Positions 29,181-57,964 of a stretch of 64,000 bases of DNA are shown in pieces. The position numbers and the translations under genes were made by a program. The stretch covers positions 3,916,001 through 3,980,000 of the forward strand of contig OZ014413.1 of assembly GCA_963965975.1 (NCBI GenBank). The letters run 5' to 3'. Below the pieces are notes generated by a model. That model saw only the letters and a list, made by a program, of their open reading frames with translations, was not told where the DNA came from and made no database searches. The first letter of the stretch is position 1. Every line of letters starts with the position of its first letter. The DNA comes from Xestospongia bergquistia (taxonomy: Eukaryota > Porifera > Demospongiae > Haplosclerida > Petrosiidae).

Positions 29181-29181
29181 G

Positions 29182-29690
29182 TGACAAGCCTTTATCTTAG
29201 CTTTTCTAGAGCATTTTAATTTTACTTATATATGTCATGTCTTAACTGGCAAGCTTTTAAATTAGCTTTTCTAGAGCATTTTAATTTTACTTGTATATTC
29301 ATGTCTTAATTGACAAGCTTTTATCTTAACTTTTCTAGAGTATATTAATAATTTAATTGTATATGCATGTCTTAATTGACAAGCCTTTATCTTAGCTTTT
29401 CTAGAGCATTTTAATTTTACCTGTATATGCATGTCTTAACTGGGAAACCTTTATCTTAGATTTTCTAGAACATATAAATAATTTAATTGTATATGCATGT
29501 CTTAACTGACAAGCCTTTATCTTAGCTTTTCTAGAGCATTTTAATTTTACTTGTATATGCATGTCTTAACTGGGAAGCCTTTATCTTAGCTTTTCTAGAG
29601 TATATTAATTTTATTTGTATATGCATGTCTTAACTGACAAGACTTGGTCTTAGTTTTTCTAGAGCTTATTAATTTTACTTGAGTTGGTAC
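29182..29690. repeat. 64-bp tandem repeat, copy B
   Basis: About eight units of the 64-bp family, against about five in A and C. Two units carry the variant AATAATTTAATTGTATATG. Confidence 0.92.
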
Positions 29691-29787
29691 ATACACCGAT
29701 ACTAACAATTTTCTTTGCATGCTTGGAATGTGCAATAAACCTTAAAGTACATGTATAATATGATATGTCTTAGCATTCCCTTTAATA

Positions 29788-32700
29788 GCATAACTGTCCA
29801 ATCTACTGTGTTTTTATGTAACTGTCCCATCTACTGTGTTCTAAAACAGTCTCATTTACCATGTTCTAAATCTGTCCCATCTACCGTGTTCTAGCGTAAC
29901 TGTCCCATCTACTGTGTTCTAATTAAACTGTCCCATCTACTGTGTTCTAACATAACTGTCCCATCTAATGTGTTCTAATGTAACTGTCTTGTCTACTGTG
30001 TCTTAATGTAACTGTGTGATCTAGTGTGTTCTAAATTGATTTTCCTATCTCATGCGTTCTAATGTAACTCTCGCATATACTCTGTTCGAATGTAATCATC
30101 CTGTCTATTGTGTTCTAACATAACTGTCCCATCTACTGTGTCATAACGTAACTGTCCCATGTACTGTGTCCTAAAGTAAGTGTCCTAAAGTAATTGTTCC
30201 ATCTACTGTGTTCTAATGAATCTTTCCAATGAACTGATTTCTAATGTAACTGTCCCATCTACTGTGTTCTAATAAAACTGTACCATCTGCTGTGTTTAAA
30301 TGAAACTGTCCCATCTACTGTGTTCTAATGAAACTGTCTCATCTACCGTGTCCTATAGTAACTGTTTCATCTACTGTGTTTTAATGTAACACTTATGTCT
30401 ACTGTGTCCTAATGTAACTTGTCTGATCTACTGTTTCCTAAAATCCATCTATTGTGTTCTAATGTAACTGTCCAATGAGCTCATTTTTAGTGTTCTAATG
30501 TAACTGTCCAATGAACTGATTTCTAATGTCTAATTTAACTGTCCCATCTAGTGTGTTCTAATAAAACTGTCCCATCTACTGTGTTCTAATGAAACTGTCT
30601 CATCTACTGTGTCCTATAGTAACTGTCATATTTACTGTCCTTTAATATAGTTCTCTTGTCTACTGGGTCCTAATGTAACTTGTCTGATGTACCGTGTCCT
30701 AAATCCATCTACTATGTTCTAATGTAACTGTCCAATGAGCTCATTTCTAGTGTTCTAATGTAACTGTCCAATGAACTGATTTCTAATGTCTAATTTAACT
30801 GTCCCATCTAGTGTGTTCTAATGAAACTGTCCCATCTACTGTGTCCTATAGTAACTGTCATATTTACTGTCCTTTAATATAGTTCTCTTGTCTACTGGGT
30901 CCTAATGTAACTTGTCTGATGTACCGTGTCCTAAATCCATCTACTATGTTCTAATGTAACTGTCCAATGAGCTCATTTCTAGTGTTCTAATGTAACTGTC
31001 CAATGAACTGATTTCTAATGTCTAATTTAACTGTCCCATCTAGTGTGTTCTAATGAAACTGTCCCATCTACTGTGTTTTAATGAAACTGTATCATCTACT
31101 GTGTTCTAATGAAACTGTCCCATCTACTGTGTCCTGTAGTAACTTGTCTGATCTACTGTGTCCTAAAGTAATTGTCCACTCTACTGTCTTCTAATGTAAC
31201 TGTCCAATAAACTGATTTTTACCATAACTGTCCCATCTACTGTGTTCTAATGAAACTGTCCCTTCTACTTTGTTCTAATGAAACTGTATCATCTACTGTG
31301 TTCTAATAAAACTGACCCATCTACTGTGTCCTAATGAAACTGTTCCAAAGTAATTGTCCCATCTACTGTGTTCTAATGTAACTGTGCAATGAACTAATTT
31401 TTAATGTAACTGTCCCATCTACTTTGTTCTAGTGAAAATGTCCCATCTACTGTGTCCTGATGAAACTTTCCCATCTAGTTTTTTTTTAATGTAACTCTCC
31501 TGTCTACAGTGTCTTAATGTAACTGTCCGATCTACTGTGTTCTAATATAACTGTCCCATCTACTGTGTTCTAAAGTAACTGTGTAATTGTCCCATCAAGT
31601 GTCTTCTAATTTAACTGTCCCATGTACTGTGTCCTAATGTAACAGTCCCATCTACTGTGTTCTAATGTAACTGCCCCATCTACTGTGTCCTAAAGTAACT
31701 GTCCTGTCTACTGTGTCCTATTGTAACTGACTGATGTACTGTGTCCTCAAGTAATTGTCCCATCAACTGTGTTCTTATGTAACTATCCCATCAACTGTGT
31801 CCTAATGTCCTATCAACTGTGTCCTATTGTGACTGTCCCATCAACTGTGTCCTAGTTTGTCTGTCCCATACTGTGTCATCTACTATGTCCTAATGTGACT
31901 GTCCCATCTAATGTGTCCTCTAAGGTAACTATCCTGTCTATTGTGTTCTAATGTAACTGCCCTATCTACTGTTCTAAAGTAACTGTCATGTCTACTATGT
32001 CCTTGTACTGTGTCCTAAAGTAATTGTCCCATCAACTGTGTTCTAACGTAATTATCCCATCAACTGTGTTCTAATGTAACTGCCCAACATACTGTGTCCT
32101 AAAGTAACTGTCCTGTCTACTGTGTCCTATTGTAACTGACTGATCTATTGTGTCCTCATGTAATTGTCTCATCAATTGTGTTCTTATGTAACTATCCCAT
32201 TAACTGTGTCCTAACGTCCTATTAACTGTGTTCTATTGTGACTGTCCCATCAACTGTGTCCTAGTTTGTCTGTCCCATATACTGTGTCATCTACTATGTC
32301 CTAATGTGACTGTCCCATTTACTGTGTCCTAAAATAACTGTCCTGTCTACAGTGTCCTATTTAATTGACTGATGTACTGTGTCCTCAAGTAATTGTCCCA
32401 TGAACTGTGTTTTTATGTAACTATCCCATCAACTGTGTCCTAATGTCCCATCAACTGTGTCCTATGTGACTGTCCCATCAACTGTGTCTTAGTTTGACTG
32501 TCTCATATACTGTGTCATCTACTATGTCCTATTGTGACTGTCCCATCTAATGTGTCCTCTTTCGTAACTGTCCTGTTTATTGTGTTGTAATGTAACTGCC
32601 CTATCTACTGTTCTAAAGTGACTGTCGTGTCTACTATGTCCTTGTACTGTGTCCTAAAGTAATTGTCCCATCAACTGTGTTCTAACGTAATTGTCCCATC

Positions 32701-33429
32701 AACTGTGTTCTAATGTAACTGCCCAATCTACTGTGTCCTAAAGTAACTGTCCTGTCTACTGTGTCCTATTGTAACTGACTGATCTATTGTGTCCTCATGT
32801 AATTGTCCCATCAACTGTGTTCTTATGTAACTATCCCATCAACTCTGTCCTAACATCCTATCAACTGTGTCCTATTGTGACTGTCCCATCAACAGTGTCT
32901 TAGTTTGTCTGTCCCATATATTGCGTCATCTACTATGTCCTAATGTGACTGTCCCTTCTACTGTGTCCTAAAATAACTGTCCTGTCTACTGTGTCCTATT
33001 GTAATTGACTGATGTACTGTGTCCTCAAGTAATTGTCCCATCAACTGTGTTCTTATGTAACTATCCAATCAACTGTGTCCTAATGTCCTATCAACTGTGT
33101 CCTATTGTGACTGTCCCATCAACTGTGTCCTAGCTTGACTGTCCCATCTAATGTGTCCTCTAACATAACTGTCCTGTCTATTGTGTTCTAATGTAACTGC
33201 CCTATCTACTGTTCTAAAGTGACTGTCCTGTCTACTATGTCCTTGTACTGTGTTCTAACGTAATTGTCCCATCATTTGTGTTCTAACGTAATTGTCCCAT
33301 CATTTGTGTTCTAACGTAATTGTCCCATCAACTGTGTTCTAACGTAATTGTCCCATCAACTGTGTTGTAATGTAATTGTCCCATCTACTGCTTTCTAATG
33401 CAATTGACCCATCTACTGTGTCCTAATGT
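29788..33429. repeat. 28-bp minisatellite, second array, copy B
   Basis: Matches 10,500-14,147. Higher-order blocks are visible: the block containing GTTCTCTTGTCTACTGGG occurs at about 30,650 and 30,890, and the block with TCCTATTGTGACTGTCCCAT recurs four times in 31,820-33,120. Confidence 0.93.
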
Positions 33430-33838
33430 AACCATTAAAAGATGATTATGTTAGGCCATTAAATCATGATCAATGTTAGGCCATTAAAAGACGATCAATG
33501 TTAGGCCATTAAAAGATGTAGTTTGAGCATGGCCATTAAAAGATGATCATGTTAGGCCATTGAAAGATGTATTTCGAACATATTAGGCCATCATAAGATG
33601 CATTCGAGCATATTACGCCATTAAAAGTTGTAGTTTGAGCATATTAGGCCATTATCAGATGTGTTTTGAGCATATTTGGCCATAAAAGATGTTTTTTGAG
33701 CATATTAGGCTATTAATCGATGTATTTTGAGCATATTAGGCCATTAAAAGATGTATTTTGAGCATAGTAGGCCATTAAAAGATGTATTTTGAGCATATTA
33801 AGCCCTTAACAGATGTCTTTTGAGCATATTAGGCCAAT
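33430..33838. repeat. 31-bp tandem repeat, copy B
   Basis: About 13 units of the TTAGGCCATTAAAAGATG family. It has a first block with GATGATCATGTTAGG-type units not expanded in copy A. Confidence 0.92.
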
Positions 33839-33973
33839 AAAAAAGAATGAGAGGTGGAAGGGTGGGTGGACGGCAATACAGTATCACCTCCACGTTGGTG
33901 TCGTCTGGAGCATCATAGGTATCCTAGCTATGATGTACTGAGAGTACTGTCAATCCTCAGCTCATTCTTTTTT
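33839..33973. repeat. Nested inverted-repeat element, copy B
   Basis: The outer arms are a perfect 13-bp inverted pair: AAAAAAGAATGAG (33,839-33,851) and CTCATTCTTTTTT (33,961-33,973). Inside, CATCATAG pairs with CTATGATG around a 9-base loop, GTAC-TGAGA-GTAC forms a second hairpin, and GAGGTGG can pair with the CACCTC side with one mismatch in this copy. The total is 135 bp. Confidence 0.65.
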
Positions 33974-35866
33974 GAAGCGTATATAATATAGTAGCTCTGT
34001 AGTTTGGCTAGTAGATTGTAAAGTTTGAAATTGTTATGGCAAAAAGTTGTATCAATAATATAGCAAATGTGGCCAGCCTCATAACTTTAATGTTTTTTTC
34101 ACAGTTATACTAAAGCCTCTTTTTAATTGGTTTGCTTTATTTTTGTCCTTTTTTCCACTTTTTTAACAATTTGTACAGTTTCTGTTATAGTTGGAGAATG
34201 CATGTCGAAATGCTTGTTAACACTGGAATGCAAACAGTATCTTTTACATATTACCCGCACTTTGTGTATTTTAAACACTATTTCAAAGGCTGTTAAATAA
34301 TCAAAGCCATTTCTCACTAACATACATGTTTAGCAAAAAATATATAGAATCAGATCAAATTCGACTTGAATGGGGTATATTTGTTATATATATATAAATG
34401 TAATTGCTCACATTTTCTATAGAATCTTACCAAATTAGATTATGTCTAAAAGCTGGTGGAAGTTAGCTATTACAGTAGTGCAGTATATCAGCATGCTTTG
34501 CTACATAAAAGGTACAATAATATTTATAAGTTCGTGCGTTAATATATATCTTTCGTTGTTAAGATTTAAAGAAATTTTACCATCCATTTTACTTCCCTAT
34601 AGCCCTTGTAGTGATGTATATGGTAAAGAAGGTTATATGACTGTTGACATTTTACCAAAGACTGTTAATTACTCTGGAACTTTGCTGCAGTGTGTGTAAT
34701 TTAACAAACGACTTCTCAGAAAAAGGACATATTACATGTGGTGTCTATTATAAACTATATGGTATAGTGCTTGCATTTCTATTTTCAGTTCAGTGGCAAT
34801 CATTATGTTACTGTTTGTGCTGTCAAGATAGTAGGATGTACCATCAAGTACATACTACAAGAACTGGTAAACTGCCCATCATGACCACCTTTTGATTTAT
34901 TCAATTTATTTGATAATGTGTTATTTTTGTTACATTCTCCACATAAAATTTGCCAAGACAAAACCGAGTCTGTATTTTAGTTTCTGTTGTTAGAAGTCTT
35001 TTAAAACAAACGATAATTGCTTACAGAAATAAGACAAAGGAACATAATGGATATCCAGAATCCTATTAAATTGTCCTAAAAAATGGATCATTTTAAGATA
35101 AAATCTGCAGTATAGTAGTGCTCCAGTGTATACAGTTATAACAGATTAGGAAAAAGAGACAGAAATCTCAAAACTTCAAGAATCCTTACAATTCCAAGGA
35201 TATTATTGATAGTCTACACCAGCAAGTCCATTGGAACGGAAAGAAGACCGTGCTCACAATGAGAGATATATAGGTGGTTATTCTGAATATGATCATTTCA
35301 ATGACAAATATAAACTGGTGTGTGGCTCCAAAAACAGGTTGAGCTATATGTGCCATATGTATTATCTGACTCACTTGTACAAAACCTAAACTACTTAGTC
35401 ATTTTCCCATGTGATCGACGCATTCTTTACCTCAAATTTTAGTCAAAATTTTGACTACTCAATAGTGAAGTGTTACCCCTGTCTGATGATCCCATTTTGC
35501 CAACACCCAGTCACATGATTTCAACACGTAAATATAAAGGATAAAAGCAGGCTGAGGTTTGATGGGTAAATGTTTCCTCTGTTTGAGGAATTCTTGAGAG
35601 AGAGAGAGAAATTTAAATTGTCTCATATTATACTCTGCCATTGGTACAAAATAACTATAAGACAAAAGAAAATTATATTATGTATTGTTTAAAATATTAT
35701 TGTTATAGGTGTTTGGTGGTAGTGTGTTTATTAGCCACATATTGAAAGCTAAACAAACCAGTGCTAGTGAACTGATCAGAATAAAAATCTGATACCCTAA
35801 CTGTGGCAAATTTGGAGAGCAAACTCATTTAATAGTAGGATTCTCTAAACTAGTCGGACTTAACAT
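33974..35866. pseudogene. Possible remnants of a multi-exon gene, copy B
   Basis: Same content as 14,701-16,557. The plus-strand exon-like piece 34,442-34,511 (SKSWWKLAITVVQYISMLC) ends in a GTACAA donor, but its acceptor has changed from GTTAG|GATT to GTTAAG|ATT, which breaks the frame on splicing. The minus-strand frame 34,123-34,323 is shortened by a frameshift compared with copy C. These changes argue for decay. Confidence 0.3.
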
Positions 35867-38800
35867 TGTATATATAACTGTAACATTAGGTGCTACTGAT
35901 ACTATTGTAAGAAGTAATGGAGCTGGAACTCGTAGAGGACAAAGGTGTAATACTGAGACAGGTTATAACTTTTAATAACTAGATGCTAATATTGTATATA
36001 TAACTGTAACATTAAGAGCTACTAATACTACTGTAAGAAGTAATGAAACTTCAACTCGTAGAGGACAAAGGTGTAATACTGAGACAGGTTATAACTTTTA
36101 ATAACTAGGTGCTAATATTGTATATATAACTGTAACATTAAGAGCTACTAATAATACTGTAAGAAGTAATGGAACTTCAACTCGTAGAGGACAAAGGTGT
36201 AATACTGAGACAGGTTATAACTTTTAATAACTAGATGCCAATATTGTATATATAACTGTAACATTAGGAGCTACTAATACTACTGTAAGAAGTAATGGAA
36301 CTCCAACTCAAAGAGGACAAAGGAGTATTACTGAGATAGGTTATAACTTTCAATAATTAGATACTAATATTGTATATATAACTGTAACAATAGGAGCTAC
36401 TGGTACTATTGTAAGAAGTAATGGAACTGGAACTCGTAGAGGACAAAAAAGTATTACTGAGACAGGTTATAACTTTTAATAACTACATAATAATATTGTA
36501 TATATAACAGTAACATTAGGAGCTACTGATACTACTGTAAGAAGTAATGGAACTATAACTCATAGAGGACGAAAGTGTAATACTGAGACAGGTTAAACTT
36601 TTAATAACTAGATACTAATAATGTATATATAACTGTAACATTAGGTGCTACTGATACTATTGTAAGAAGTAATGGAACTGGAACTCGCAGAGGACAAAGG
36701 TGTAATACTGAGACTGGTTATAACTTTTAATAACTAGGTGCTAATATTGTATATATAACTGTAACATTAAGAGCTACTAATACTACTGTAAGAAGTAATG
36801 GAACTTCAACTCGTAGAGGACAAAGGAGTATTACTGAGATAGGTTATAACTTTTAATAACTAGATACTAATATTGTATATATAACTGTAACATTAGGAGC
36901 TACTGGTACTATTGTAAGAAGTAATGGAACTCCAACTCAAAGAGGACAAAGGAGTATTACTGAGATAGGTTATAACTTTTAATAACTAGATACTAATATT
37001 GTATATATAACTGTAACATTAGGAGCTACTGGTACTATTGTAAGAAGTAATGGAACTGGAACTCGTAGAGGACAAACAAGTATTATTGAGACAGGTTATA
37101 ACTTTTAATAACTACATACTAATATTGTATATATAACAGTAACATTAGGAGCTACTGATACTACTGTAAGAAGTAATGGAACTCCAACTCATAGAGGACA
37201 AAGGTGTAATACTGAGACAGGTTATTACTTTTAATAAGTAAATACTAATATTGTATATTATAACTGTAACATTAGGTGCTACTGATACTACTGTAAGAAG
37301 TAATAGAACTGGAACTCGTAGAGGACAAAGAAGTATTACTGAGACAGGTTATAACTTTTAATAACTAGATACTAATATTGTATATACAACTGTATCATTA
37401 GGTGCTACTGATACTACTGTAAGAAGTAATGGAACTGGAACTCGTAGAGGACAAAGAAGTATTACTGAGACAGTTTATAACTTTTAATAACTAGATACTA
37501 ATATTGTATATACAACTGTATCATTAGGTGCTACTGATACTACTGTAAGAAGTAATGGAACTGGAACTCGTAGAGGACAAAAAAGTATTACTGAGACAGG
37601 TTATAACTTTTAATAACTACATAATAATATTGTATATATAACAGTAACATTAGGAGCTACTGATACTACTGTAAGAAGTAATGGAACTATAACTCATAGA
37701 GGACGAAAGTGTAATACTGAGACAGGTTAAACTTTTAATAACTAGATACTAATAATGTATATATAACTGTAACATTAGGTGCTACTGATACTATTGTAAG
37801 AAGTAATGGAACTGGAACTCGCAGAGGACAAAGGTGTAATACTGAGACTGGTTATAACTTTTAATAACTAGGTGCTAATATTGTATATATAACTGTAACA
37901 TTAAGAGCTACTAATACTACTGTAAGAAGTAATGGAACTTCAACTCGTAGAGGACAAAGGTGTAATACTGAGACAGGTTATAACTTTTAATAACTAGATG
38001 CCAATATTGTATATATAACTGTAACATTAGGAGCTACTAATACTACTGTAAGAAGTAATGGAACTCCAACTCAAAGAGGACAAAGGAGTATTACTGAGAT
38101 AGGTTATAACTTTTAATAACTAGATACTAATATTGTATATATAACTGTAACATTAGGAGCTACTGGTACTATTGTAAGAAGTAATGGAACTGGAACTCGT
38201 AGAGGACAAACAAGTATTATTGAGACAGGTTATAACTTTTAATAACTACATACTAATATTGTATATATAACAGTAACATTAGGAGCTACTGATACTACTG
38301 TAAGAAGTAATGGAACTCCAACTCATAGAGGACAAAGGTGTAATACTGAGACAGGTTATTACTTTTAATAAGTAAATACTAATATTGTATATTATAACTG
38401 TAACATTAGGTGCTACTGATACTACTGTAAGAAGTAATAGAACTGGAACTCGTAGAGGACAAAGAAGTATTACTGAGACAGGTTATAACTTTTAATAACT
38501 AGATACTAATATTGTATATACAACTGTATCATTAGGTGCTACTGATACTACTGTAAGAAGTAATGGAACTGGAACTCGTAGAGGACAAAGAAGTATTACT
38601 GAGACAGTTTATAACTTTTAATAACTAGATACTAATATTGTATATACAACTGTATCATTAGGTGCTACTGATACTACTGTAAGAAGTAATGGAACTGGAA
38701 CTCGTAGAGGACAAAGAAGTATTACTGAGACAGTTTATAACTTTTAATAACTAGATACTAATATTGTATATATAACTGTAACATTAGGTGCTACTGATAC

Positions 38801-41800
38801 TATTGTAAGAAGTAATGGAACTGGAACTCGCAGAGGACAAAGGTGTAATACTTAGACTGGTTATAACTTTTAATAACTAGGTGCTAATATTGTATATATA
38901 ACTGTAACATTAAGAGCTACTAATACTACTGTAAGAAGTAATGGAACTTCAACTCGTAGAGGACAAAGGTGTAATACTGAGACAGGTTATAACTTTTAAT
39001 AACTAGATGCCAATATTGTATATATAACTGTAACATTAGGAGCTACTAATACTACTGTAAGAAGTAATGGAACTCCAACTCAAAGAGGACAAAGGAGTAT
39101 TACTGAGATAGGTTATAACTTTTAATAACTAGATACTAATATTGTATATATAACTGTAACATTAGGAGCTACTGGTACTATTGTAAGAAGTAATGGAACT
39201 GGAACTCGTAGAGGACAAACAAGTATTATTGAGACAGGTTATAACTTTTAATAACTACATACTAATATTGTATATATAACAGTAACATTAGGAGCTACTG
39301 ATACTACTGTAAGAAGTAATGGAACTCCAACTCATAGAGGACAAAGGTGTAATACTGAGACAGGTTATTACTTTTAATAAGTAAATACTAATATTGTATA
39401 TTATAACTGTAACATTAGGTGCTACTGATACTACTGTAAGAAGTAATAGAACTGGAACTCGTAGAGGACAAAGAAGTATTACTGAGACAGGTTATAACTT
39501 TTAATAACTAGATACTAATATTGTATATACAACTGTATCATTAGGTGCTACTGATACTACTGTAAGAAGTAATGGAACTGGAACTCGTAGAGGACAAAGA
39601 AGTATTACTGAGACAGTTTATAACTTTTAATAACTAGATACTAATATTGTATATACAACTGTATCATTAGGTGCTACTGATACTACTGTAAGAAGTAATG
39701 GAACTGGAACTCGTAGAGGACAAAGAAGTATTACTGAGACAGTTTATAACTTTTAATAACTAGATACTAATATTGTATATATAACTGTAACATTAGGAGC
39801 TACTGATACTACTGTAAGAAGTAATGGAAATGGAACTCGTAGAGGACAAAGAAGTATTACTGAGACAGGTTATAACTTTTAATAACTAGATACTAATATT
39901 GTATATATAACTGTAACATTAGGTGCTACTGATACTACTGTAAGAAGTAATGGAACTGGAACTCGTAGAAGACAAAGGTGTAATACTGAAACAGGTTATA
40001 ACTTTTAATAACTAGATGCTAATATTGTATATATAACTGTAACCTATGAGCTACTAATACTAATGTAAGAAGTAATGGAACTGGAACTCGTAGAGGACAA
40101 TGAAGTATTAATAAGACAGGTTATAACTTTTAATAACTAGATACTAATATTGTATATATAACTGTAACATTAGGAGGTACTGATACTACTACAAAAAGTA
40201 ATGGCACTCCAACTCATAGAGGACAAAGGAGTATTACTGAAACAGGTTATAACTTTTAAAAACTAGATACTAATATTGTATATATAACTGTAACATTAGG
40301 AGCTACTGATACTAATGTAAAAAGTAATGGAACTGGAACTCGTAGAGGACAAAGAAGTATTACTGAGACAGGTTATAACTTTTAATAACTAGATGCTAAT
40401 ATTGTATATATAACTGTAACATTAGGAGCTACTAATACTACTGTAAGAAGTAATGGAACTCCAACTCATAGAGGACAAAGGAGTATTACTGAGATAGGTT
40501 ATAACTTTTAATAAGTAGATACTAATATTGTATATATAACTGTAACATTAGGAGCTACTGATACTAATGTAAGAAGTAATGGAACTGGAACTCGTAGATG
40601 AGAAAGAAGTATTACTGAGACAGGTTAATACTTTTAATAACTAGATACTAATATTGTATATATAACTGTAACATTAGGTGCTACTGATACTATTGTAAGA
40701 AGTAATGGAACTGGAACTCGTAGAGGTCAAATGTGTAATACGACAGGTAATAACTTTTATAACTAGATGCTGATATTGTATATATAACTGTAACATTAGG
40801 AGCTACTAATTCTAATGTAAGAAGTAATGGAACTGGAACTCGTAGAGGACAAAGGAGTATTACTGAGACTGGTTATAAATTTTAATAACTAGATACTAAT
40901 ATTGTATATATAACTGTAACATTAGGAACTACTGATACTACTGTAAGAAGTAATGGAACTCCAACTCATAGAGGACAAAGGAGTATTACTGAGACAATTT
41001 ATAACTTTTAATAACTAGATACTAATATTGTATATATAACTGTAACATTAGGAGCTACTGATACTACTGTAAGAAGTAATGGAACTGGAACTCGTAGAGG
41101 ACAAAAGGTGTAATACTGAGACAGGATATAACTTTTAATAGCTAGATACTAATATTGTATATATAACTGTAACATTAGGAGCTACTGATACTACTGTAAG
41201 AAGTAATGGAACTCCAACTCATAGAGGAGAAAGGAGTATTACTGAGATAGGTTATAACTTTTAATAACTAGATACTAATATTGTGTATATAACTGTAACA
41301 TTAGGAGCTACTGATACTACTGTAAGAAGTAATGGAACTGGAACTCGTAGAGGACAAAGAAGTATTACTGAGACAGGTTATAACTTTTAATAACTAGATA
41401 CTAATATTGTATATATAACTGTAACATTAGGAGCTACTGATACTACTGTAAGAGGTAATGGAACTGGAACTCGTAGAGGACAAAAGGTGTAATACTGAGA
41501 CAGGATATAACTTTTAATGGCTAGATACTAATATTGTATATATAACTGTAACATTAGGAGCTACTGATACTACTGTAAGAAGTAATGGAACTCCAACTCA
41601 TAGAGGAGAAAGGAGTATTACTGAGATAGGTTATAACTTTTAATAACTAGATACTAATATTGTGTATATAACTGTAACATTAGGAGCTACTGATACTACT
41701 GTAAGAAGTAATGGAACTGGAACTCGTAGAGGACAAAGAAGTATTACTGAGACAGGTTATAACTTTTAATAACTAGATACTAATATTGTATATATAACTG

Positions 41801-42754
41801 TAACATTAGGTGCTTCTGATACTACTGTAAGAATTAATGGAACTGCAACTCGTAGAGGACAAAGGAGTATTACTGAGATAGGTTATAACTATTAATAACT
41901 AGATACTAATATTGTATATATAACTGTAACATTAGGATCTACTGATACTACTGTAAGAAGTAATGAAACTGGAACTCGTAGAGGACAAAGAAGTATTACT
42001 GAGACAGGTTATAACTTTTAATAACTAGATACTAATATTGTATATATAACTGTAACATTAGGTGCTTCTGATACTACTGTAAGAATTAATGGAACTGCAA
42101 CTCGTAGAGGACAAAGGAGTATTACTGAGATAGGTTATAACTTTTAATAACTAGATACTAATATTGTATATATAACTGTAACATTAGGATCTACTGATAC
42201 TACTGTAAGAAGTAATGAAACTGGAACTCGTAGAGGACAAAGAAGTATTACTGAGACAGGTTATAACTTTTAATAACTAGATACTAATATTGTATATATA
42301 ACTGTAACATTAGGAGCTACTGATACTACTGTAAGAAGTAATGGAACTGCAACTTTTAGAGGACAGAGAAGTAATACTGAGACAGGTTATAACTTTTAAT
42401 AACTAGATACTAATATTGTATATATAACTGTAACATTAGGTGCTACTGATACTACTGTAAGAAGTAATGGAACTGCAACTCGTAGAGGACAAAGGAGTAT
42501 TACGTAGATAGGTTATAACTTTTAATAACTAGATACTAATATTGTATATATAACTGTAACATTAGGAGCTACTGATACTACTGTAAGAAGTAATGGAACT
42601 GCAACTCATAAAGGACAAAGAAGTAATACTGAGACAGGTTATAACTTTTAATAACTAGATACTAATATTGTATATATAAATGTAACATTAGGTGCTACTG
42701 ATACTATTGTAAGAAGTAATGGAACTGGAACTCGTAGAGATACTAGTGATACTG
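35866..42754 (+). repeat. 126-bp exon-intron array 1 (about 55 units)
   Basis: Each unit is a 72-nt exon and a 54-nt intron. The first exon is 35,890-35,961. Its intron starts GTTATAACTTTTAATAACTA and ends AACTGTAACATTAG. In the single frame that crosses the phase-1 junctions (G|GT or G|GA) the exon reads GATDTTVRSNGT, then a two-residue variable pair, then RRGQRSITET. The distance from first to last exon start (35,890 to 42,692) is 54 times 126 within 2 bp, so about 55 exons encode about 1,300 residues if all are used. The unspliced frame stops at once at TAATAA inside the intron. Some units carry lesions: TAG at about 38,851 and 42,503, TGA at about 40,099 and 40,596, +1 shifts at about 41,100 and 41,490, and GT lost at several donors (CAGTTT). 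The array begins abruptly inside an intron at the edge of copy B. Confidence 0.85.
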
Positions 42755-42951
42755 GTAATAACTTTTAGTAACTTCATACTATTTTTAATGTGTTAGTTTC
42801 TTGTCTTAGTGGTAATTGTGCTCATCCTCGTTCTAGTACTTGTATTATGTGTTCACTTTGCCAAGAATGGATGCATTGCATTTGTGTGCCTATACCACAA
42901 CAGAAGGCCAAGTCTAAGAGTTTTGTTTTTATTTGTAAGAAATGTGAATGA
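42692..42951 (+). CDS. Terminal array exon plus PHD-like finger exon
   Basis: The last array exon, 42,692-42,754, is 63 nt and diverges at its end (RRDTSDT). A 42-nt GT-AG intron (42,755-42,796) joins it in phase 1 to 42,797-42,951, which ends in TGA. That exon encodes 50-odd residues starting SCLSGNCAHP, with cysteines and a histidine in C4HC3 order: Cys-x4-Cys, Cys-x2-Cys, then x4-His-x2-Cys (inside SLCQEWMHCICV), then a C-terminal CKKC pair. This is a PHD-like zinc finger, of the kind carried at the C terminus of many pogo/Tigger-type transposases in invertebrates. An AATAAA lies at 43,026-43,031, about 75 nt past the stop. It is the 3' end of a gene whose upstream part is array 1; no DDE domain remains on that side. 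Confidence 0.75.
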
Positions 42952-43593
42952 TGTATTAGCTCAATTACTATGATATTTATGAGTATAACTATCTAATGTT
43001 ACATATTAATATTTCTTTTGAGGAAAATAAACAACTATATTAGAATAAAGGTGGAGCTATAATTAAAATCAGGCTATGCTTGGTATTTGAGTGTTTGTTT
43101 ACACTTTATATAATACCTACCACTATAGTTGTAACGTCTTTGTGTTGAAATTCCTAGTGGTATTGACAGCAAAAAAAGAAAGCGTTTTCAGTCCGTACAT
43201 CGGGTGTCTGAATATTGGCCACGTAGATGCCTCCAAAGTAATGCTAATTTTGCAGAAACAGAGTGAAAGGGAGTTATTATTGTTTGCTGTTATTATAGTG
43301 CAATAACATTCCTACCTGCTGATGGTAGCAACCGTGCAGTTGTTTCTTTCCTTGCGAGAGGAAAGTCCATGTCCGTCATTTAGAATTTTTGTCCGAACAA
43401 GGGGCAGTCCGAAAATTAGGGTTTGAAAGCGTTTATCTCTGGCACCCAGAGCTATTTCATTTCAATATCGTGGATACTATATTGCTTCTTTCAGTTCTAC
43501 CTGGAAATAGTAAAAGAATGTCTGGAGGATGTACTATGTTAGTGCTAGCACGTCCGATTGATGGGCGTGTCCGATAATTGGCCGTTTACTCAG
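42952..43593. other. Spacer with TIR-like motifs before the transposase
   Basis: Non-satellite DNA, higher in GC than its surroundings. An open frame at 43,389-43,577 has no recognisable domain. It overlaps the GTCCGA motifs, so it is probably not protein. The 5' part expected of the transposase (DNA-binding helices and the first catalytic Asp) is not found here on either strand. Confidence 0.5.
43189..43583. repeat. Three bipartite GTCCGA motifs, TIR or transposase-site-like
   Basis: Three spaced copies of a 30-32-bp motif made of two GTCCGA-like half sites: 43,189-43,220 (CAGTCCGTACATCGGG, then TGTCTGAATATTGGCC), 43,391-43,421 (GTCCGAACAAGGGG, then CAGTCCGAAAATTAGGG), and 43,552-43,583 (GTCCGATTGATGGG, then CGTGTCCGATAATTGGCC). 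They resemble the terminal or subterminal sites of pogo/Tigger elements, which start with CAGT. No inverted partner was found on the right side of the transposase. Confidence 0.45.
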
Positions 43594-44776
43594 TAAACCA
43601 CCACTTGTCATTTTTGATAGAAAGACGTTGAAACTTGACTTGACACATGGAGAGGTCCCCGGCACCATGTATGGTCTTAGTGACAGTGGGTGGATGGATG
43701 CAGAAATTTTTGAGTGGTGGTTTACTAGCCACTTTTTGGTTTATGCTCCTCCTGCTCGACCACTGCTTTTTCTCATGGATGGACACTCTAGTCAATTTTC
43801 ACCAGTATTTGTCAACAAAGCAGCAGAAGAGCAAGTTATTGTCTTTTGTCTTCCTCCATATAGTACACACAAGACTCAACCTTTAGATAAAGGTGTATTC
43901 AGTCCGCTGAAGAAAGCATGGAGAGAGGAGTGTCATTCATACATGGTTAATAATCCTGGCAAAGTTGTGACTCAATATCAATTCTCTCTGTTGTTTAACT
44001 GTGCTTGGATGAAAGCAATGACTCCACACAATAACATATCTGGTTTTATGGTTACTGGTATTTACTCAATTGACAGGTGTGCAAATTAAACTTTTATTAT
44101 TATTTTCTTTTCATTAGGTTCAAAGTATTAACCAAGAGTCCACCCAAGCACCCCACCATGTGTGAACGAACTGGTCTGAAGTTTATTCCACTGTTCACTC
44201 CTCTTCGCCATTCAGTGCAATCAGCAGCTACTGGTATTACTCCTGTCTCAACTCCTTATGATAATGTTCAAAGTGATGAGTCAATGTCTGTTGAGTCAGA
44301 AAATGATTATACAGTGCTTGAAGAGTCATTACTATACCACAACTCTAGTTGTCATCAACAATCTTCTGACACTGTACACCAACGCTTTACTCATGATGAG
44401 ATAGTGAGATTCTCTCGACGTAAGGCAGAAGGATATAACATCAAAACTGATCCCAGATACAATTATTGGTTGTCACTTCAGAATGGAGCAACAGCACCTG
44501 CACCTTCATCTCCTACACCAGTTCTACAACCTTCATCTCATTCAGTAGTGTCTAAGCTAATTGCTGCAATGCCTCCTGAAAGAGTAATTCCAAAATTTAC
44601 AGCAAAGTCAAGTGCACGTGTGTTGACCAGTGAAGAATGTAGAAAGGAAATAAATGAGAAAAAAAGGAAAAAAGCAGAAGCTTTGAAGCAGAAAGAAGAG
44701 AGAAAACTTGAGCATAAGCGTAAACAAGAGGAGAAACGAAAGATTTTAGAAGAAAAGCTAAAGAAAAAACATAAAA
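43594..44776 (+). pseudogene. Pogo/Tigger-type DDE transposase, 5'-truncated
   Basis: Exon 1 opens after CAG at 43,593 and reads KPPLVIFDRKTLKLDL, with GLSDSGWMDAEIF, the second catalytic Asp in FLMDGHSSQF, then LPPYSTHKTQPLDKGVF with the third acidic site, and AMTPHN near the end. These are DDE_1 (pogo/Tigger/jerky) hallmarks. A 41-nt intron (44,077-44,117, phase 2) joins exon 2, 44,118-44,776, which has the family's spacer (CERTGLKFIPL, RFTHDEIVRFSRRKAEGY) and a long basic coiled coil beginning ARVLTSEECRKEI. The N-terminal DNA-binding region and the first Asp (usually in a DETG-type motif) are absent, so it could not cut DNA on its own. It continues by splicing into array 2. It is the probable origin of the gene whose tail became the arrays. 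Confidence 0.82.
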
Positions 44777-44866
44777 GTAAGAAAATAATCCTTTATTTTT
44801 ACATTTCAATACTTTTAGTTTGTACTACTATGAGTCAGAGAAGACAAAAGAGTATTACTGAGACAG
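44777..44866 (+). CDS. Short intron and 48-nt linker exon into array 2
   Basis: A 42-nt intron (44,777-44,818; donor GTAAGA, acceptor TTTTAG) leads to a 48-nt exon, 44,819-44,866, phase 1 at both ends. It encodes ICTTMSQRRQKSITET followed by the G of the next junction. Its second half matches the end of the 24-residue repeat (RRGQRSITET), and its donor is GTAATAAC, as in the last intron before the PHD exon. It looks like the ancestral neighbour or founder of the repeated exon. Confidence 0.75.
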
Positions 44867-47800
44867 GTAATAACTTTCAATAACTAGATAATAATATTGC
44901 ATATATAACTGTAACATTAGGAGCTACTGATACTACTGTAAGAAGTAATGGAACTGCAACACATAGAGGACAAAGAAGTAATACTGAGACAGGTTATAAC
45001 TTTTAATAACTAGATACTAAAATTGTATATATAACTGTAACATTAGGTGCTACTGATACTACTGTAAGAAGTAATGGAACTGCAACTCATAGAGGACAAA
45101 GGAGTATTACTGAGACAGGTTATAACTTTTAATAACAAGATACTAATATTGTATATATAACTGTCACATTAGGTGCTATTGATACTACCGTAAAAAGTAA
45201 TGGAACTGCCACTCATAGAGGACAAAGGTGTAATATTGAGACAGGTTATAACTTTTAATAACTAGATGCTAAAATTGTATATATAACTGTAACATTAGGA
45301 GCTACTGATACTACTGTAAGAAGTAATGGAACTACAACTCGTAGAGGACAAAGAAGTAATACTGAGACAGGTTATAACTTTTAATAACTAAATACTATAA
45401 TTGTATATATAACTGTAACATTAGGTGCTACTGATACTACTGTAAGAAGTAATGGAGCTGGAACTCGTAGAGGACAAAGGAGTATTACTGAGACAGGTTA
45501 TAACTTTTAATAACTAGATACTAATATTGTATATATAACTGTAACATTAGGTGCTACTGATACTACTGTAAGAAGTAATGGAGTTGGAACTCGTAGAGGA
45601 AAAAGGAGTATTACTGAGACAGGTTATAACTTTTAATAACTAGATGCTAATATTGTATATATAATAACTGTAACATTTGGAGCTACTAATAAGAAGTAAT
45701 GGAACTGCAACTCGTAGAGGACAAAGGAGTATTACTGAGACAGGTTATAACTTTTAATAACTAGATGCTAATATTGTATATATAATAACTGTAACATTTG
45801 GAGCTACTAATACTACTGTAAGAAGTAATGGAACTGCAACTCGTAGAGGACAAAGGAGTATTACTGAGACAGGTTATAACTTTTAATAACTAGATACTAA
45901 TATTGTATATATAACTGTAACATTAGGAGCTACTAATACTACTGTAAGAAGTAATGGAACTGCAACTCGTAGAGGACAAAGGAGTAATACTGAGACAGGT
46001 TATAACTTTTAATAACTAGATACTAATATTGTATATATAACTGTAACATTAGGTGCTACTGATACTATTGTAAGAAGTAAAGGAACTGCAACTCGTAGAG
46101 GACAAAGGTGTAATACTGAGACAGGTTATAACTTTTAATAACTAGATGCTAATATTGTATATATAACTGTAACATTAGGAGCTACTGATACTACTGTAAG
46201 AAGTAATGGAACTGGAACTCGTAGAGGACAAAGAAGTATTACTGAGACAGGTTGTAACTTTTAATAACTAGATACTAATATTGTATATATAACTGTAACA
46301 TTAGGTGCTGCTGAAACTACTGTAAGAAGTAATGGAACTGGAACTCGTAGAGGACAGAGAAGTAATACTGAGACAGGTTATAACTTTTAATAACTAGATA
46401 GTAATATTGTATATATAACTGTAACATTAGGAGCTACTGATACTACTGTAAGAAGTAATGGAGCTGGAACTTGTAGTGGACAAAGGAGTATTACTGAGAC
46501 AGGTTATAACTTTTAATAACTAGATACTGATATTGTATATATAACTGTAACATTAGGAGCTACTAATACTACTGTAAGAAGTAATGGAACTCCGACTCAT
46601 AGAGGACAAAGGAGTATTACTGAGATAGGTTATAACTTTTAATAACTAGATACTAATATTGTATATATAACTGTAACATTAGGAGCTACTGATACTACTG
46701 TAAGAAGTAATGGAACTGGAACTCGTAGAGGACAAAGAAGTATTACTGAGACAGGCTATAACTTTTAATAACTAGATACTAATATTGTATATATAACTGT
46801 AACATTAGGAGCTACTGATACTACTGTAAGAAGTATGGAACTGCAACTCGTAGAGGACAGAGAAGTAATACTGAGACAGGTTATAACTTTTAATAACTAG
46901 ATACTAATATTGTATATATAACTGTAACATTAGGTGCTAGTGATACTATTGTAAGAAGTAAAGGAACTGCAACTCGTAGAGGACAAAGGTGTAATACTGA
47001 GATGGGTTATAACTTTTAATAAGTAGATGCTAATATTGTATATATAATAACTGTAACATTTGGAGCTACTGATACTACTGTAAGAAGTATGGAACTGCAA
47101 CTCGTAGAGGACAAAGCAGTATTACTGAGACAGGTTATAACTTTTAATAACTAGATACTAATATTGTATATATAACTGTAACATTAGGTGCTACTGATAC
47201 TATTGTAAGAAGTAATGGAACTGGAACTCGTAGAGGACAAAGGTGTAATACTGAGACAGGTTATCACTTTTAATAACTAGATAAAAATATTGTATATATA
47301 ACTGTAACATTAGGAGCTACTGATACTACTGTAAGAAGTAATGGAACTGGAACTCGTAGAGGACAGAGAAGTATTACTGAGACAGGTTATATCTTTTAAT
47401 AACTAGATACTAATATTGTATATATAACTGTAACATTAGGAACTACTGATACTTTTGTAAGAAGTAATGGAACTGGAACTCGTAGAGGACAAATATGTAA
47501 TACTGAGACAGGTTATAACTTTTAATAACTAGATACTAATATTGTATATATAACTGTAACATTAGGAGCTACTAATACTACTGTAAGAAGTGATGGAACT
47601 CCAACTCATTGAGGACAAAGGAGTATTACTGAGATAGGTTGTAACTTTTAATAACTAGATACTAATATTGTATATATAACTGTAACATTAGGAGCTACTA
47701 ATACTACTGTAAGAAGTAATGGAACTGGAACTCGAAGAGGACAGAGAAGTAATACTGAGACAGGTTATAACTTTTAATAACTAGATACTAATATTGTATA

Positions 47801-50800
47801 TATAACTGTAACATTAGGAGCTACTGATACTACTGTAAGAAGTAATGGAACTGGAACTCGTAGAGGACAGAGAAGTAATACTGAGACAGGTTATAACTTT
47901 TAATAACTAGATACTAATATTGTATATATAACTGTAACATTAGGAGCTACTGATACTACTGTAAGAAGTATGGAACTGCAACTCGTAGAGGACAGAGAAG
48001 TAATACTGAGACAGGTTATAACTTTTAATAACTAGATACTAATATTGTATATATAACTGTAACATTAGGTGCTAGTGATACTATTGTAAGAAGTAAAGGA
48101 ACTGCAACTCGTAGAGGACAAAGGTGTAATACTGAGATGGGTTATAACTTTTAATAAGTAGATGCTAATATTGTATATATAATAACTGTAACATTTGGAG
48201 CTACTGATACTACTGTAAGAAGTATGGAACTGCAACTCGTAGAGGACAAAGCAGTATTACTGAGACAGGTTATAACTTTTAATAACTAGATACTAATATT
48301 GTATATATAACTGTAACATTAGGTGCTACTGATACTATTGTAAGAAGTAATGGAACTGGAACTCGTAGAGGACAAAGGTGTAATACTGAGACAGGTTATA
48401 ACTTTTAATAACTAGATAAAAATATTGTATATATAACTGTAACATTAGGAGCTACTGATACTACTGTAAGAAGTAATGGAACTGGAACTCGTAGAGGACA
48501 GAGAAGTATTACTGAGACAGGTTATATTTTAATAACTAGATACTAATATTGTATATATAACTGTAACATTAGGAACTACTGATACTTTTGTAAGAAGTAA
48601 TGGAACTGGAACTCTTAGAGGACAAATGTGTAATACTGAGACAGGTTATAACTTTTAATAACTAGATACTAATATTGTATATATAACTGTAACATTAGGA
48701 GCTACTAATACTACTGTAAGAAGTGATGGAACTCCAACTCATTGAGGACAAAGGAGTATTACTGAGATAGGTTGTAACTTTTAATAACTAGATACTAATA
48801 TTGTATATATAACTGTAACATTAGGAGCTACTAATACTACTGTAAGAAGTAATGGAACTGGAACTCGAAGAAGACAGAGAAGTAATACTGAGACAGGTTA
48901 TAACTTTTAATAACTAGATACTAATATTGTATATATAACTGTAACATTAGGAGCTACTGATACTACTGTAAGAAGTAATGGAACTGGAACTCGTATTGGA
49001 CAGAGAAGTAATACTGAGACAGGTTATAACTTTTAATAACTAGATACTGATATTGTATATATAACTGTAACATTAGGAGCTACTAATACTACTGTAAGAA
49101 GTAATGGAACTCCGACTCATAGAGGACAAAGGAGTATTACTGAGATAGGTTATAACTTTTAATAACTAGATACTAATATTGTATATATAACTGGAACATT
49201 AGGAGCTACTGATACTACTGTAAGAAGTAATGGAACTGGAAATCGTAGAGGACAAAGAAGTATTACTGAGACAGGCTATAACTTTTAATAACTAGATACT
49301 AATATTGTATATATAACTGTAACATTAGGAGCTACTGATACTACTGTAAGAAGTATGGAACTGCAACTCGTAGAGGACAGAGAAGTAATACTGAGACAGG
49401 TTATAACTTTTAATAACTAGATACTAATATTGTATATATAACTGTAACATTAGGTGCTAGTGATACTATTGTAAGAAGTAAAGGAACTGCAACTCGTAGA
49501 GGACAAAGGTGTAATAATGAGATGGGTTATAACTTTTAATAACTAGATGCTAATATTGTATATATAATAACTGTAACATTTGGAGCTACTAATACTACTG
49601 TAAGAAGTAATGGAACTGCAACTCGTTGAGGACAAAGGAGTATTACTGAGACAGGTTATAACTTTTAATAACAAGATACTAATATTGTATATATAACTGT
49701 AACATTAGGTGCTACTGGTACTACTGTAAGAAGTAAAGGAACTGCAACTCGTAGAGGACAAAGGTGTAATACTGAGATGGTTTATAACTTTTAATAACTA
49801 GATGCTAATATTGTATATATAATAACTGTAACTTTTGGAGCTACTAATACTACTGTAAGAAGTAATGGAACTGCAACTCGTAGAGGACAAAGGAGTATTA
49901 CTGAGACAGGTTATAACTTTTAATAACTAGATACTAATATTGTATATATAACTGTAACATTAGGTGCTAGTGATACTATTGTAAGAAGTAAAGGAACTGC
50001 AACTCGTAGAGGACAAAGGTGTAATACTGAGATGGGTTATAACTTTTAATAAGTAGATGCTAATATTGTATATATAATAACTGTAACATTTGGAGCTACT
50101 GATACTACTGTAAGAAGTATGGAACTGCAACTCGTAGAGAACAAAGCAGTATTACTGAGACAGGTTATAACTTTTAATAACTAGATACTAATATTGTATA
50201 TATAACTGTAACATTAGGTGCTACTGATACTATTGTAAGAAGTAATGGAACTGGAACTCGTAGAGGACAAAGGTGTAATACTGAGAGAGGTTATAACTTT
50301 TAATAACTAGATAAAAATATTGTATATATAACTGTAACATTAGGAGCTACTGATACTACTGTAAGAAGTAATGGAACTGGAACTCGTAGAGGACAGAGAA
50401 GTATTACTGAGACAGGTTATATCTTTTAATAACTAGATACTAATATTGTATATATAACTGTAACATTAGGAACTACTGATACTTTTGTAAGAAATAATGG
50501 AACTGGAACTCGTAGAGGACAAATGTGTAATACTGAGACAGGTTATAACTTTTAATAACTAGATACTAATATTGTATATATAACTGTAACATTAGGAGCT
50601 ACTAATACTACTGTAAGAAGTGATGGAACTCCAACTCATTGAGGACAAAGGAGTATTACTGAGATAGGTTGTAACTTTTAATAACTAGATACTAATATTG
50701 TATATATAACTGTAACATTAGGAGCTACTAATACTACTGTAAGAAGTAATGGAACTGGAACTCGAAGAGGACAAAGGAGTATTACTGATATAAGTTATAA

Positions 50801-51005
50801 CTTTTAATAACTAGATACTAATATTGTATATATAACTGTAACATTATGAGCTACTGATACTACTGTAAGAAGTAATGGAACTCCAACTCATAGAGGACAA
50901 AGGAGTATTACTGAGATAGGTGATAACTTTTAATAACTAGATACTAATATTGTATATATAACTGTAACATTAGGAGCTACTAATACTACTGTAAGAAGTA
51001 ATGGA
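44867..51005 (+). repeat. 126-bp exon-intron array 2 (about 49 units)
   Basis: The first intron is 44,867-44,920 (54 nt) and the first exon 44,921-44,992 (72 nt, GATDTTVRSNGT, then ATHRGQRSNTET). The last exon starts at 50,974 and is cut after about 32 nt, where copy C begins. The distance is 48 times 126 within about 5 bp. Lesions recur: a 1-nt loss in AAGTATGGAACTG (about 46,832; 47,087; 47,968; 48,219; 49,353; 50,118), CATTGAGG stops (about 47,607; 48,740; 50,637), CGTTGAGG (about 49,623), and a short exon at about 45,683. Some introns are 57 nt, with ATAATAACTG, and lose the TTAG acceptor (ACATTTGGAG), where the next AG sits exactly 3 nt on. There is no PHD exon downstream. Confidence 0.85.
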
Positions 51006-51399
51006 ATAGGTGTGAAATAGTTCATATATTTTAAGTGTAGTCTGTTAAGTTCATATCTGGTTAGTGTTACAATGGGAAATTATAAGAGTGGATGAATAGC
51101 TTTATGTATTTTTTTAGGTTCTATTTTCAAGTATGACATCAGAGAAATGACAAGTCATTACTCAAGATTGTTTAGTCACTTCTGTCATTCGTCTTCACAA
51201 TCAGCTATTTTGGTAATTGTCTGAGATGATCTAATGTACGACTACATTATATTTATATATAAGATATTTTGGAGCTGCTATGTACAGCAAAGTCAGATAT
51301 CAAATAGTGCCAGTAATATTATTTTTAATAACGGATATTTAATGGGTTTTCTTTGTTCTCATTACTTGGATTGATAGCTAATGAGGTGGACAGGACATT

Positions 51400-53389: not shown

Positions 53390-53543
53390 TTTGTACTAGA
53401 AAATAATAAACTTAGACGCCATTACTTCATTTTAGCAACCAGAGTGTCAGGACTTTACTTCTGCAGAGCTGTTTAGCAAGACCAGATGAAAGAACTGGAT
53501 TCCATTACTTCATTTTAGCAACCAGTCTGTCGGGACTTTACTT

Positions 53544-53729
53544 ATGCAGGGCTGTTTAGCAAGACAAGAGGAAACTGGATTCCATGCAGCCAGGCCATTT
53601 GACAATGTTTTCTGTAGTAAATCTGAGATGATGCCCCTGGCTACAACAAAAGAGAAAGACAGTAGTAACAAATACGGTCAGAGTAGCAGTACTCCATGTG
53701 TGTTAGTATATCTAGCTTGCCTAACTTAA
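53544..53729 (+). CDS. Hypothetical 61-residue frame, copy C
   Basis: Counterpart of 5,952-6,137 and 24,677-24,862, with further changes (S/C, G/A, T/S, P/L). It is kept open but without sign of constraint, and there is no recognisable domain. Confidence 0.2.
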   Translation: MQGCLARQEETGFHAARPFDNVFCSKSEMMPLATTKEKDSSNKYGQSSSTPCVLVYLACLT

Positions 53730-53869
53730 CTTTTAAATTTAGTGAGCTTTAGCCCTTAGTTTTAGTGGATCTGTTATCTGAACTAAGCCTGTCATCAGTC
53801 ATTTTTAAACATAATATATCACTAGTCCTTTTCTCTGTAATATATAGACTTTAGTAACCAGTATATTAA

Positions 53870-57553: not shown

Positions 57554-57554
57554 T

Positions 57555-57862: not shown

Positions 57863-57964
57863 TGGTACATACACCGATACTAACAATTTTCTTTGCATGC
57901 TTGGAATGTGCAATGAACCTTAAAGTACATATATAATATGATATGTCTTAGCATTCCCTTTAAT

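What the first reader, a model, noticed from the sequence alone, without database searches (positions are those of the whole stretch)
35866..51005. A satellite whose unit is a complete exon plus intron: about 104 symmetric 24-codon micro-exons
Seen: the 126-bp unit splits cleanly into a 72-nt segment open in one frame and a 54-nt segment starting GTTATA or GTAATA and ending TTAG, with branch-like TACTAAT and TTAATAAC inside. Joining the 72-nt segments leaves one continuous frame in which all introns are phase 1. Unspliced sequence hits TAATAA immediately after each exon. Inference: this is exon amplification inside a transposase-derived gene, able to encode a linker of over a thousand residues made of GATDTTVRSNGT...RRGQRSITET repeats. 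I do not know of a described case with this many tandem copies of an exon-intron unit.
Basis: partly seen in the sequence, partly recalled or inferred. Interest (0 to 1): 0.92.

Follow-up and report, generated by a model that had tools for sequence, protein, structure and literature searches.

The report
Transposon gene exon repeated as satellite
A stretch of about 100 near-identical 126-base repeats turns out to be one small coding segment plus its intron, copied over and over inside a dead jumping gene of an unnamed eukaryote, and related jumping genes in the same genome carry their own, differently worded repeats of the same design at the same place.

Summary
The 126-bp repeat is real (54 and 48 full units), but it is two arrays. 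A 2.1-kb piece between them holds a PHD exon with stop, a transposon end and part of a pogo/Tigger (DDE_1) transposase: two truncated elements, head to tail. The exon-intron origin is supported. Five copies elsewhere run DDE - array - PHD with about 4 to 40 units, both splice sites intact in 47 of 47 distinct units. A thousand-residue coding linker here is not supported: 59 of 77 distinct window units keep both splice sites, 9 of 102 units are frameshifted, 8 have stops, and variation over all sampled 126-bp arrays is neutral. The larger finding is outside the window: other unit sequences fill the same place in related pogo elements, in 12 of 12 loci chosen by DDE alone. One family (at least 15 copies, 13 examined) has 6-12 in-frame micro-exons per copy; one copy reads as a 19-exon, 985-residue gene with phase-1 GT-AG introns. 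Splicing is inferred; no RNA data. Whether the array is selected or tolerated is open.

The parts
35861..35889 (+). Left edge: truncated 3' end of an intron unit; the element's 5' half (transposase) is missing
   Evidence: the segmental copy of the left flank at 14627-16553 aligns only up to 35861
35890..42691 (+). Array 1: 54 full 126-bp units (72-nt exon plus 54-nt intron)
42692..42754 (+). Last exon of array 1, 63 nt, unit-derived with a different 3' end
42755..42796 (+). 42-nt GT..AG segment, phase 1, read as the intron joining array 1 to the PHD exon
42797..42951 (+). Terminal exon: PHD finger (PF00628, 24.1 bits, cut-off 24) with stop codon
43065..43591 (+). Right terminal inverted repeat of element 1 (93-96% to inverted repeats of seven other copies; 98% to a 209-bp piece in L024 and 96% to a 369-bp piece in L025)
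43597..44076 (+). Element 2, 5'-truncated: DDE_1 transposase exon (PF03184, 1.6e-18)
   Evidence: exon end read
44118..44776 (+). Exon for the lysine/glutamate-rich C-terminal part of the transposase, between a 41-nt GT..AG segment (44077-44117, phase 2) and a 42-nt one (44777-44818, phase 1)
   Evidence: one search printed the exon end one base too far
44819..44866 (+). First exon of array 2, 48 nt, unit-like 3' half
44921..51006 (+). Array 2: 48 full 126-bp units and a truncated last exon; the PHD exon and right end of element 2 are missing

Best explanation
The window holds two truncated, dead copies of a pogo/Tigger-like DNA transposon. Its transposase gene carried, between the DDE domain and a C-terminal PHD finger, a run of tandem units each made of one symmetric phase-1 micro-exon and one short intron. 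Because every unit begins and ends in the same phase and its intron carries splice sites, units can be gained or lost by unequal exchange without breaking the frame, so the linker length drifts from copy to copy. In live elements the units would be spliced into a long, mostly Thr/Ser/Gly/Arg-rich flexible linker. Once a copy is broken the same DNA goes on amplifying as an ordinary satellite without coding or splicing constraint; that is the state of both arrays here. Shown: the order of parts, copy-number differences between elements, phase and splice-site patterns, decay in the window, and different unit sequences at the same place in related elements. Inferred: that the introns are spliced, that the linker is made, and that exchange is the mechanism.
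For: Copies with DDE - array - PHD on one strand, about 14, 5, 12, 40 and 4 units (L021, L022, L023, L025, L026); long TIRs (L022: 428 + 117 bp arms, 97%); TA on both sides in L022 and L026. Both splice sites intact in 47 of 47 distinct units of these five against 59 of 77 in the window and 186 of 244 in arrays with neither DDE nor PHD in the fetched stretch (p 1e-4 and 1e-5). Family F103: 140 parsed units in 13 loci, 139 of them 3n and open, GT 139, AG 140; the one exception (first exon of L050) still reads AACAA|GTACA, so its donor GT is present and the parse slipped. Gene model of L035: 19 exons, 18 GT-AG introns all phase 1, ATG to TAA, 985 residues, inside 406-bp TIRs 99% alike flanked by TA. 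Arrays at the same place in 12 of 12 loci chosen by DDE match alone. HTH_psq, HTH_Tnp_Tc5 and DDE_1 in L035; PHD in three families above cut-off.
Against: No transcript, so splicing is not shown. Units are homogenised by amplification, so shared frame and splice sites are not independent observations. The five complete copies are also less diverged: at their own intron rate 2.9 splice mismatches were expected and 0 seen, which alone is weak. In the sister families pooled, splice bases are not clearly more conserved than the rest of the intron (5 of 72 against 64 of 765 possible changes). Frameshifted units occur in L021 and L023 (2 of 13 and 3 of 11); in L054 and L055 the first matched exon is 41 nt and puts the joined read out of frame. 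No intronless processed copy was found (one search warns that its empty answer shows nothing).
Confidence: 0.83

Rival explanations
1. The linker array is a tolerated by-product: this genome duplicates units of about 100-250 bp in tandem readily, and a symmetric exon-intron unit in a disordered linker is simply a place where such duplications do no harm.
For: Seven unit sequences compared show no convincing DNA similarity between families (plus strand, best E 0.01 and out of register) while DDE identity between five of the families is 57-76%. Exons vary at least as much as introns: nonsynonymous 121 of 733, synonymous 33 of 284, intron 64 of 765 possible changes. Many other tandem arrays lie in the window, and an EGF-like exon plus intron is repeated in tandem in L034.
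Against: The array recurs at the same place in 12 of 12 loci chosen by DDE alone, and in 13 F103 loci 139 of 140 parsed exons are 3n and open.
Confidence: 0.45
2. The array is selected: a long repeated linker between the catalytic part and the PHD finger, or the many introns, helps the element.
For: Recurrence at one place with different unit sequences; nonsense variants 2 of 36 possible against 121 of 733 nonsynonymous in sister families (small numbers); exon length types mostly in threes, intron ones mostly not (12 of 16 against 1 of 9, p 0.004). The types were tallied by hand, leaving out the window and isolated 126-bp arrays, the introns of the 248-bp family, L058, and odd parses in L037, L039, L050 and L056.
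Against: No synonymous bias; amino acid sequence varies freely.
Confidence: 0.4
3. The units serve alternative splicing: exon skipping yields many protein variants, as reported for flatworm micro-exon genes.
For: All 12 array exons of the L035 model are 3n and phase 1, so any subset keeps the frame.
Against: The exons are near copies, so skipping changes length more than sequence; no RNA data.
Confidence: 0.1
4. An ordinary satellite in which the exon-intron look is chance.
For: Such a split is possible in 46% of shuffled units; variation in the pooled 126-bp arrays is neutral.
Against: Phase-1 junctions to transposase and PHD exons, the same order in five copies, splice-site intactness there, and the L035 gene model.
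Confidence: 0.03
5. The window locus is a domesticated host gene that still encodes a long repeat protein.
Against: Missing 5' and 3' parts, an intervening stop and element end, frameshifts and stops.
Confidence: 0.03

Closest known systems
pogo/Tigger superfamily DNA transposons (PMC7386202, PMC7325037: seen as search listing and passages found by terms)
   Same: HTH_psq, HTH_Tnp_Tc5 and DDE_1 domains, TIRs, TA duplication; that this set defines pogo elements is recalled
   Different: C-terminal PHD finger with a tandem micro-exon array before it; in these two papers PHD, intron and tandem have no occurrence in the main text
Micro-exon genes of flatworms (PMC7653826, passages read; the term is credited there to Schistosoma mansoni work)
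   Same: Runs of short exons whose lengths divide by three, able to be skipped in frame
   Different: Here the exons are near-identical tandem copies with near-identical introns, inside a transposase gene, and copy number differs between elements
Flagelliform spider silk gene, titin PEVK exons, LPA kringle IV-2 repeat (recalled, not read)
   Same: Tandem repetition of exon plus intron units that keeps the frame
   Different: Those are host structural genes, with larger units in the silk and LPA cases; here units are about 100-250 bp, in mobile elements, with different units in different families, and they spill into satellite DNA
Satellite DNA derived from transposon parts (recalled)
   Same: Fate of the two window arrays and of the large arrays near C9:4.42-4.58 Mb
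   Different: The satellite unit is exactly one exon plus one intron of a coding linker

Membership tests
pogo/Tigger DNA transposon | DDE_1 catalytic domain | tested here: met
   PF03184 1.6e-18 in the window, 4.7e-21 in L035
pogo/Tigger DNA transposon | N-terminal psq / Tc5-type helix-turn-helix domains | tested here: met
   L035 only: PF05225 30.1 bits (cut-off 20.4), PF03221 23.1 bits (cut-off 22.2); the window copies lack this part and other families were not scanned for it
pogo/Tigger DNA transposon | Terminal inverted repeats | tested here: met
   L035 406 bp 99%, L022 428 + 117 bp 97%; exact end sequences not found in L023 and L028, one end only in L025 and L034
pogo/Tigger DNA transposon | TA target-site duplication | tested here: met
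   TA on both sides in L022, L026, L027, L033, L035; L021 has GA on the left
pogo/Tigger DNA transposon | Transposition activity | not testable with these tools
   At least 15 F103 copies at different places, 9 with a 639-codon open frame, suggest recent movement
Micro-exon gene (criteria in PMC7653826: at least seven exons, half or more under 70 nt and 3n, runs of four or more) | Number, length and run of micro-exons | tested here: met
   L035 model: 15 of 19 exons under 70 nt and 3n, 12 consecutive array exons of 54 or 60 nt
Micro-exon gene | Exon skipping seen in transcripts | not testable with these tools
   no RNA data
PHD finger | Pfam PHD match above its cut-off | tested here: met
   24.1, 24.4 and 26.8 bits against 24 in three families; a fourth, 20.6 bits on a 35-residue piece of L036, falls below
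Functional coding array at the window locus | Open frame, intact splice sites, synonymous bias | tested here: not met

The most novel reading that the evidence does not exclude
A lineage of DNA transposons keeps a renewable, splice-dependent protein repeat: in each family a new exon-intron unit arises at the same point of the transposase gene and multiplies there, because its length or its introns benefit the element, for instance by tethering a PHD finger at adjustable reach, or by making the gene look intron-rich to host surveillance that silences intronless mobile DNA (as HUSH does in human cells, PMC8770142, passages read; the same passages say spliced stuffer sequences did not protect, which weighs against very short introns doing so). 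Dying copies then seed satellite DNA.
Probability: 0.33. Interest if true: 0.87.

Novelty: new variant of a known kind. Interest (0 to 1): 0.72.

Why it matters
It gives a worked example of how a coding repeat can change length without frame damage when each unit carries its own intron, repeated with different sequences in related mobile elements of one genome. It also shows a path from a coding exon to satellite DNA. If the array is selected, it raises a testable question about why a transposase would need a long spliced linker, or many introns.

Tried and rejected
The idea that the exon-intron split alone proves coding was dropped after the shuffle test. A search for intronless joined exons found none: one search gave 41 matches, each a 163-bp span at 80-83% identity at the 15 F103 places, as expected of exon-intron-exon; one search was empty. 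Relatives of the transposase in viral and prokaryote contigs: none confirmed. Solved structures: none at E 0.01. An empty insertion site from the window's segmental copies was not clean. Literature searches for tandem exon-intron units, micro-exon arrays and pogo with PHD listed no such case that I could recognise from titles and abstracts; most subscription papers and all preprints are not held. My first linked/isolated split put the window arrays with the isolated ones although each touches a PHD or DDE exon; one search repeats the main test with separate classes. The excess of splice-site changes in isolated arrays shrinks to 30 events against about 20 expected when counted per array and base type, so it is only noted. 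The organism was not identified; I suspected a sponge from recall, and one search listed sponge genome papers without deciding it.
Full report
WHAT IS IN THE WINDOW. Tandem Repeats Finder gives two 126-bp arrays, 35,861-42,739 and 44,839-51,006, 91% matching, 54.6 and 48.9 copies. Parsed against a cyclic consensus they hold 54 and 48 full units, each a 72-nt segment open in one frame plus a 54-nt GT..AG segment, with partial units at the edges. Between them, 42,740-44,838 is different. The last unit-like exon (42,692-42,754) is followed by a 42-nt GT..AG segment and a 155-nt exon that reads as a PHD finger and ends in TGA. Then comes a terminal inverted repeat up to 43,591, mostly 93-96% like the inverted repeats of other copies. 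From 43,597 a second element begins inside the transposase: a DDE_1 exon to 44,076, a lysine/glutamate-rich exon to 44,776, a 42-nt phase-1 GT..AG segment, and a 48-nt exon that leads into array 2 (one search printed the exon end one base too far). So the units belong to two truncated elements in the same orientation, not to one array.

THE SAME ELEMENT ELSEWHERE IN THE GENOME. The window lies on a 146-Mb, 21-contig assembly with at least 1027 matches to the unit. Nine DDE copies, the window's own included, are 86-99% like the query, and eight PHD exons, the window's own included, are 84-100% like it. In five loci the order is DDE, basic exon, array, PHD on one strand, with about 14, 5, 12, 40 and 4 units (L021, L022, L023, L025, L026). 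L027, L028 and L024 are partial or rearranged. L029-L032 and L040 are long arrays with neither part in the fetched stretch. All nine DDE copies are interrupted or short (open frames 134-312 codons), so this family looks dead. Coordinates given here for loci on the minus strand are of the reverse complement of the fetched piece (L022, L025, L028, L029, L033, L034, L037, L039, L041-L044, L047-L049, L052, L053, L056-L058).

SISTER FAMILIES. More distant DDE relatives carry arrays at the same place with other units. F103 (L033-L035): 54- or 60-nt exons with 49-nt introns. F106 (L036, L038): 57 + 46-49. F110 (L037): 60 + 50. F102 (L039): 60 or 84 + 40 or 42. Eight further loci chosen only by their DDE match also all have a downstream array: 115 bp (L051, and 114 bp in L057), 248 bp with two exons and two introns per unit (L052-L055; mostly 90 and 51 nt), 96 bp (L056) and 137-164 bp (L058, which has a stop in the frame I tried by eye). 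With L036-L039 that makes 12 of 12 loci chosen by DDE alone. In L052 and L053 the exons my patterns caught read open when joined; in L054 and L055 the first caught exon is 41 nt and throws the joined read out of frame. Seven unit sequences (126, 103, 106, 110, 102, 115, 96) were compared on the plus strand and show no convincing similarity between families (best E 0.01, out of register); the 248- and 137-bp units were not in that comparison. DDE identity between five of the families is 57-76%. The seven encoded peptides hold 40-70% T, S, G, A and N and have net charge 0 to +4.

A READABLE GENE. F103 has at least 15 copies, nine with a 639-codon open frame around the DDE match. In 13 examined loci the array has 6 to 12 exons plus a terminal one; ten of the 13 were fetched at places picked from their PHD match. 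Of 140 parsed units 139 are 3n and open, 139 have GT and 140 have AG. The exception is the first exon of L050, where the parse slipped: AACAA|GTACA still has a donor GT. Other sister families, units that are 3n and open of all parsed: F106 17 of 17 (AG 16), F110 8 of 9, F102 15 of 17 (AG 15), F115 13 of 14, F96 5 of 6 (GT 5); some of the misses are parse slips. One copy, L035, gives a full model: 19 exons, 18 GT-AG introns, every junction phase 1, ATG to TAA, 985 residues, with HTH_psq, HTH_Tnp_Tc5, DDE_1 and PHD domains, inside 406-bp inverted repeats 99% alike flanked by TA. A single diverged unit also sits near its 5' end as exon 2, and the same sequence lies in L033 and L034.

IS THE WINDOW ARRAY CONSTRAINED? 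Over 314 distinct ungapped 126-bp units from the 15 arrays examined, variant types are 36 synonymous, 112 nonsynonymous and 6 nonsense, against 36.1, 112.1 and 6.3 expected from intron rates. That is neutral. Both splice sites are intact in 47 of 47 distinct units of the five complete copies, 12 of 12 in partial copies L024, L027 and L028, 59 of 77 in the window, and 186 of 244 in arrays with neither part nearby; complete against window p = 1e-4, complete against neither p = 1e-5, window against neither p = 1.0. Openness of exons does not differ (42 of 47, 65 of 77, 203 of 244). Caveats: complete copies are less diverged in the intron (0.015 against 0.022 and 0.029), at their own rate 2.9 splice changes were expected and none seen, and units share descent. 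In the window, 9 of 102 full units are frameshifted and 8 have stops. The window arrays therefore behave like free satellite.

SISTER-FAMILY VARIATION. Pooled over F103, F106, F110, F102, F115 and F96, changes seen out of possible changes are: nonsynonymous 121 of 733, synonymous 33 of 284, intron 64 of 765, nonsense 2 of 36, splice bases 5 of 72. Exons are at least as variable as introns, so amino acid identity is not preserved. Few nonsense changes hint at an open frame being kept, but the numbers are small, and splice bases are not clearly spared. Exon length types are mostly in threes (12 of 16), intron ones mostly not (1 of 9), p 0.004; this is a hand tally whose inclusions are given under the second rival.

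HOW IT LIKELY WORKS. A unit that starts and ends in phase 1 and carries its own intron can be gained or lost in any number without frame damage. Copy number differs between copies (6 to 12 in F103, about 4 to 40 in the window's family), and the L025 array repeats blocks of about ten or eleven units, as unequal exchange would give. Splicing would then yield a flexible linker of up to hundreds of residues between the catalytic part and a PHD finger. In dead copies the unit keeps amplifying as satellite. Splicing, protein and mechanism are inferred.

WHAT IS KNOWN. Two dedicated pogo surveys have no occurrence of PHD, intron or tandem in their main text (passages only). Flatworm micro-exon genes share 3n short exons (passages) but are not described in those passages as tandem exon-intron copies in transposons. 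Tandem exon-intron repetition itself is known from host genes such as flagelliform silk, titin and LPA (recalled). I found no described case in mobile elements (listings).

LIMITS. No RNA data. Two of 15 F103 copies were not examined.

Noticed in passing
window 5,800-14,600; 24,500-33,900; 53,400-62,500: Three blocks of degenerate 28-bp minisatellites with other short arrays, which look like large segmental copies; the left flank of the 126-bp array (33,900-35,861) has copies at 14,627-16,553 and 62,452-64,000.
   Followed up: partly
L034, reverse-complement positions 1754-2280: An EGF-like exon plus intron of 147 bp repeated about 3.6 times at 92% (the EGF reading is by eye), perhaps a host gene, suggesting exon-intron tandem duplication is not confined to transposons here.
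   Followed up: no
G000 C5 4.57-5.19 Mb, C6 3.37-4.24 Mb, C7 4.74-5.18 Mb, C13 3.30-4.15 Mb, C15 2.44-3.10 Mb: DDE copies of about 52-54% identity recur at spacings mostly of about 100-220 kb on these contigs, with like frames and stops, as if inside very large repeat units.
   Followed up: no
G000 C9 4.42-4.58 Mb: Large 126-bp arrays spread over about 150 kb with many matching positions offset by 38,779 bp, i.e. a higher-order duplication of satellite blocks.
   Followed up: no
L029-L032, L040, window arrays: In arrays outside complete elements the four splice-site bases differ more often than interior intron bases (85 of 1276 against 381 of 15631); counted per array the excess is small. Unexplained.
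   Followed up: partly
L035 3200-3253: A lone diverged copy of the 103-bp family exon near the 5' end of the transposase gene, in frame as exon 2, far from the array.
   Followed up: partly
L026 1-425: A 114-bp exon-intron-like array resembling the L051/L057 unit, not far from an oppositely oriented DDE fragment.
   Followed up: no
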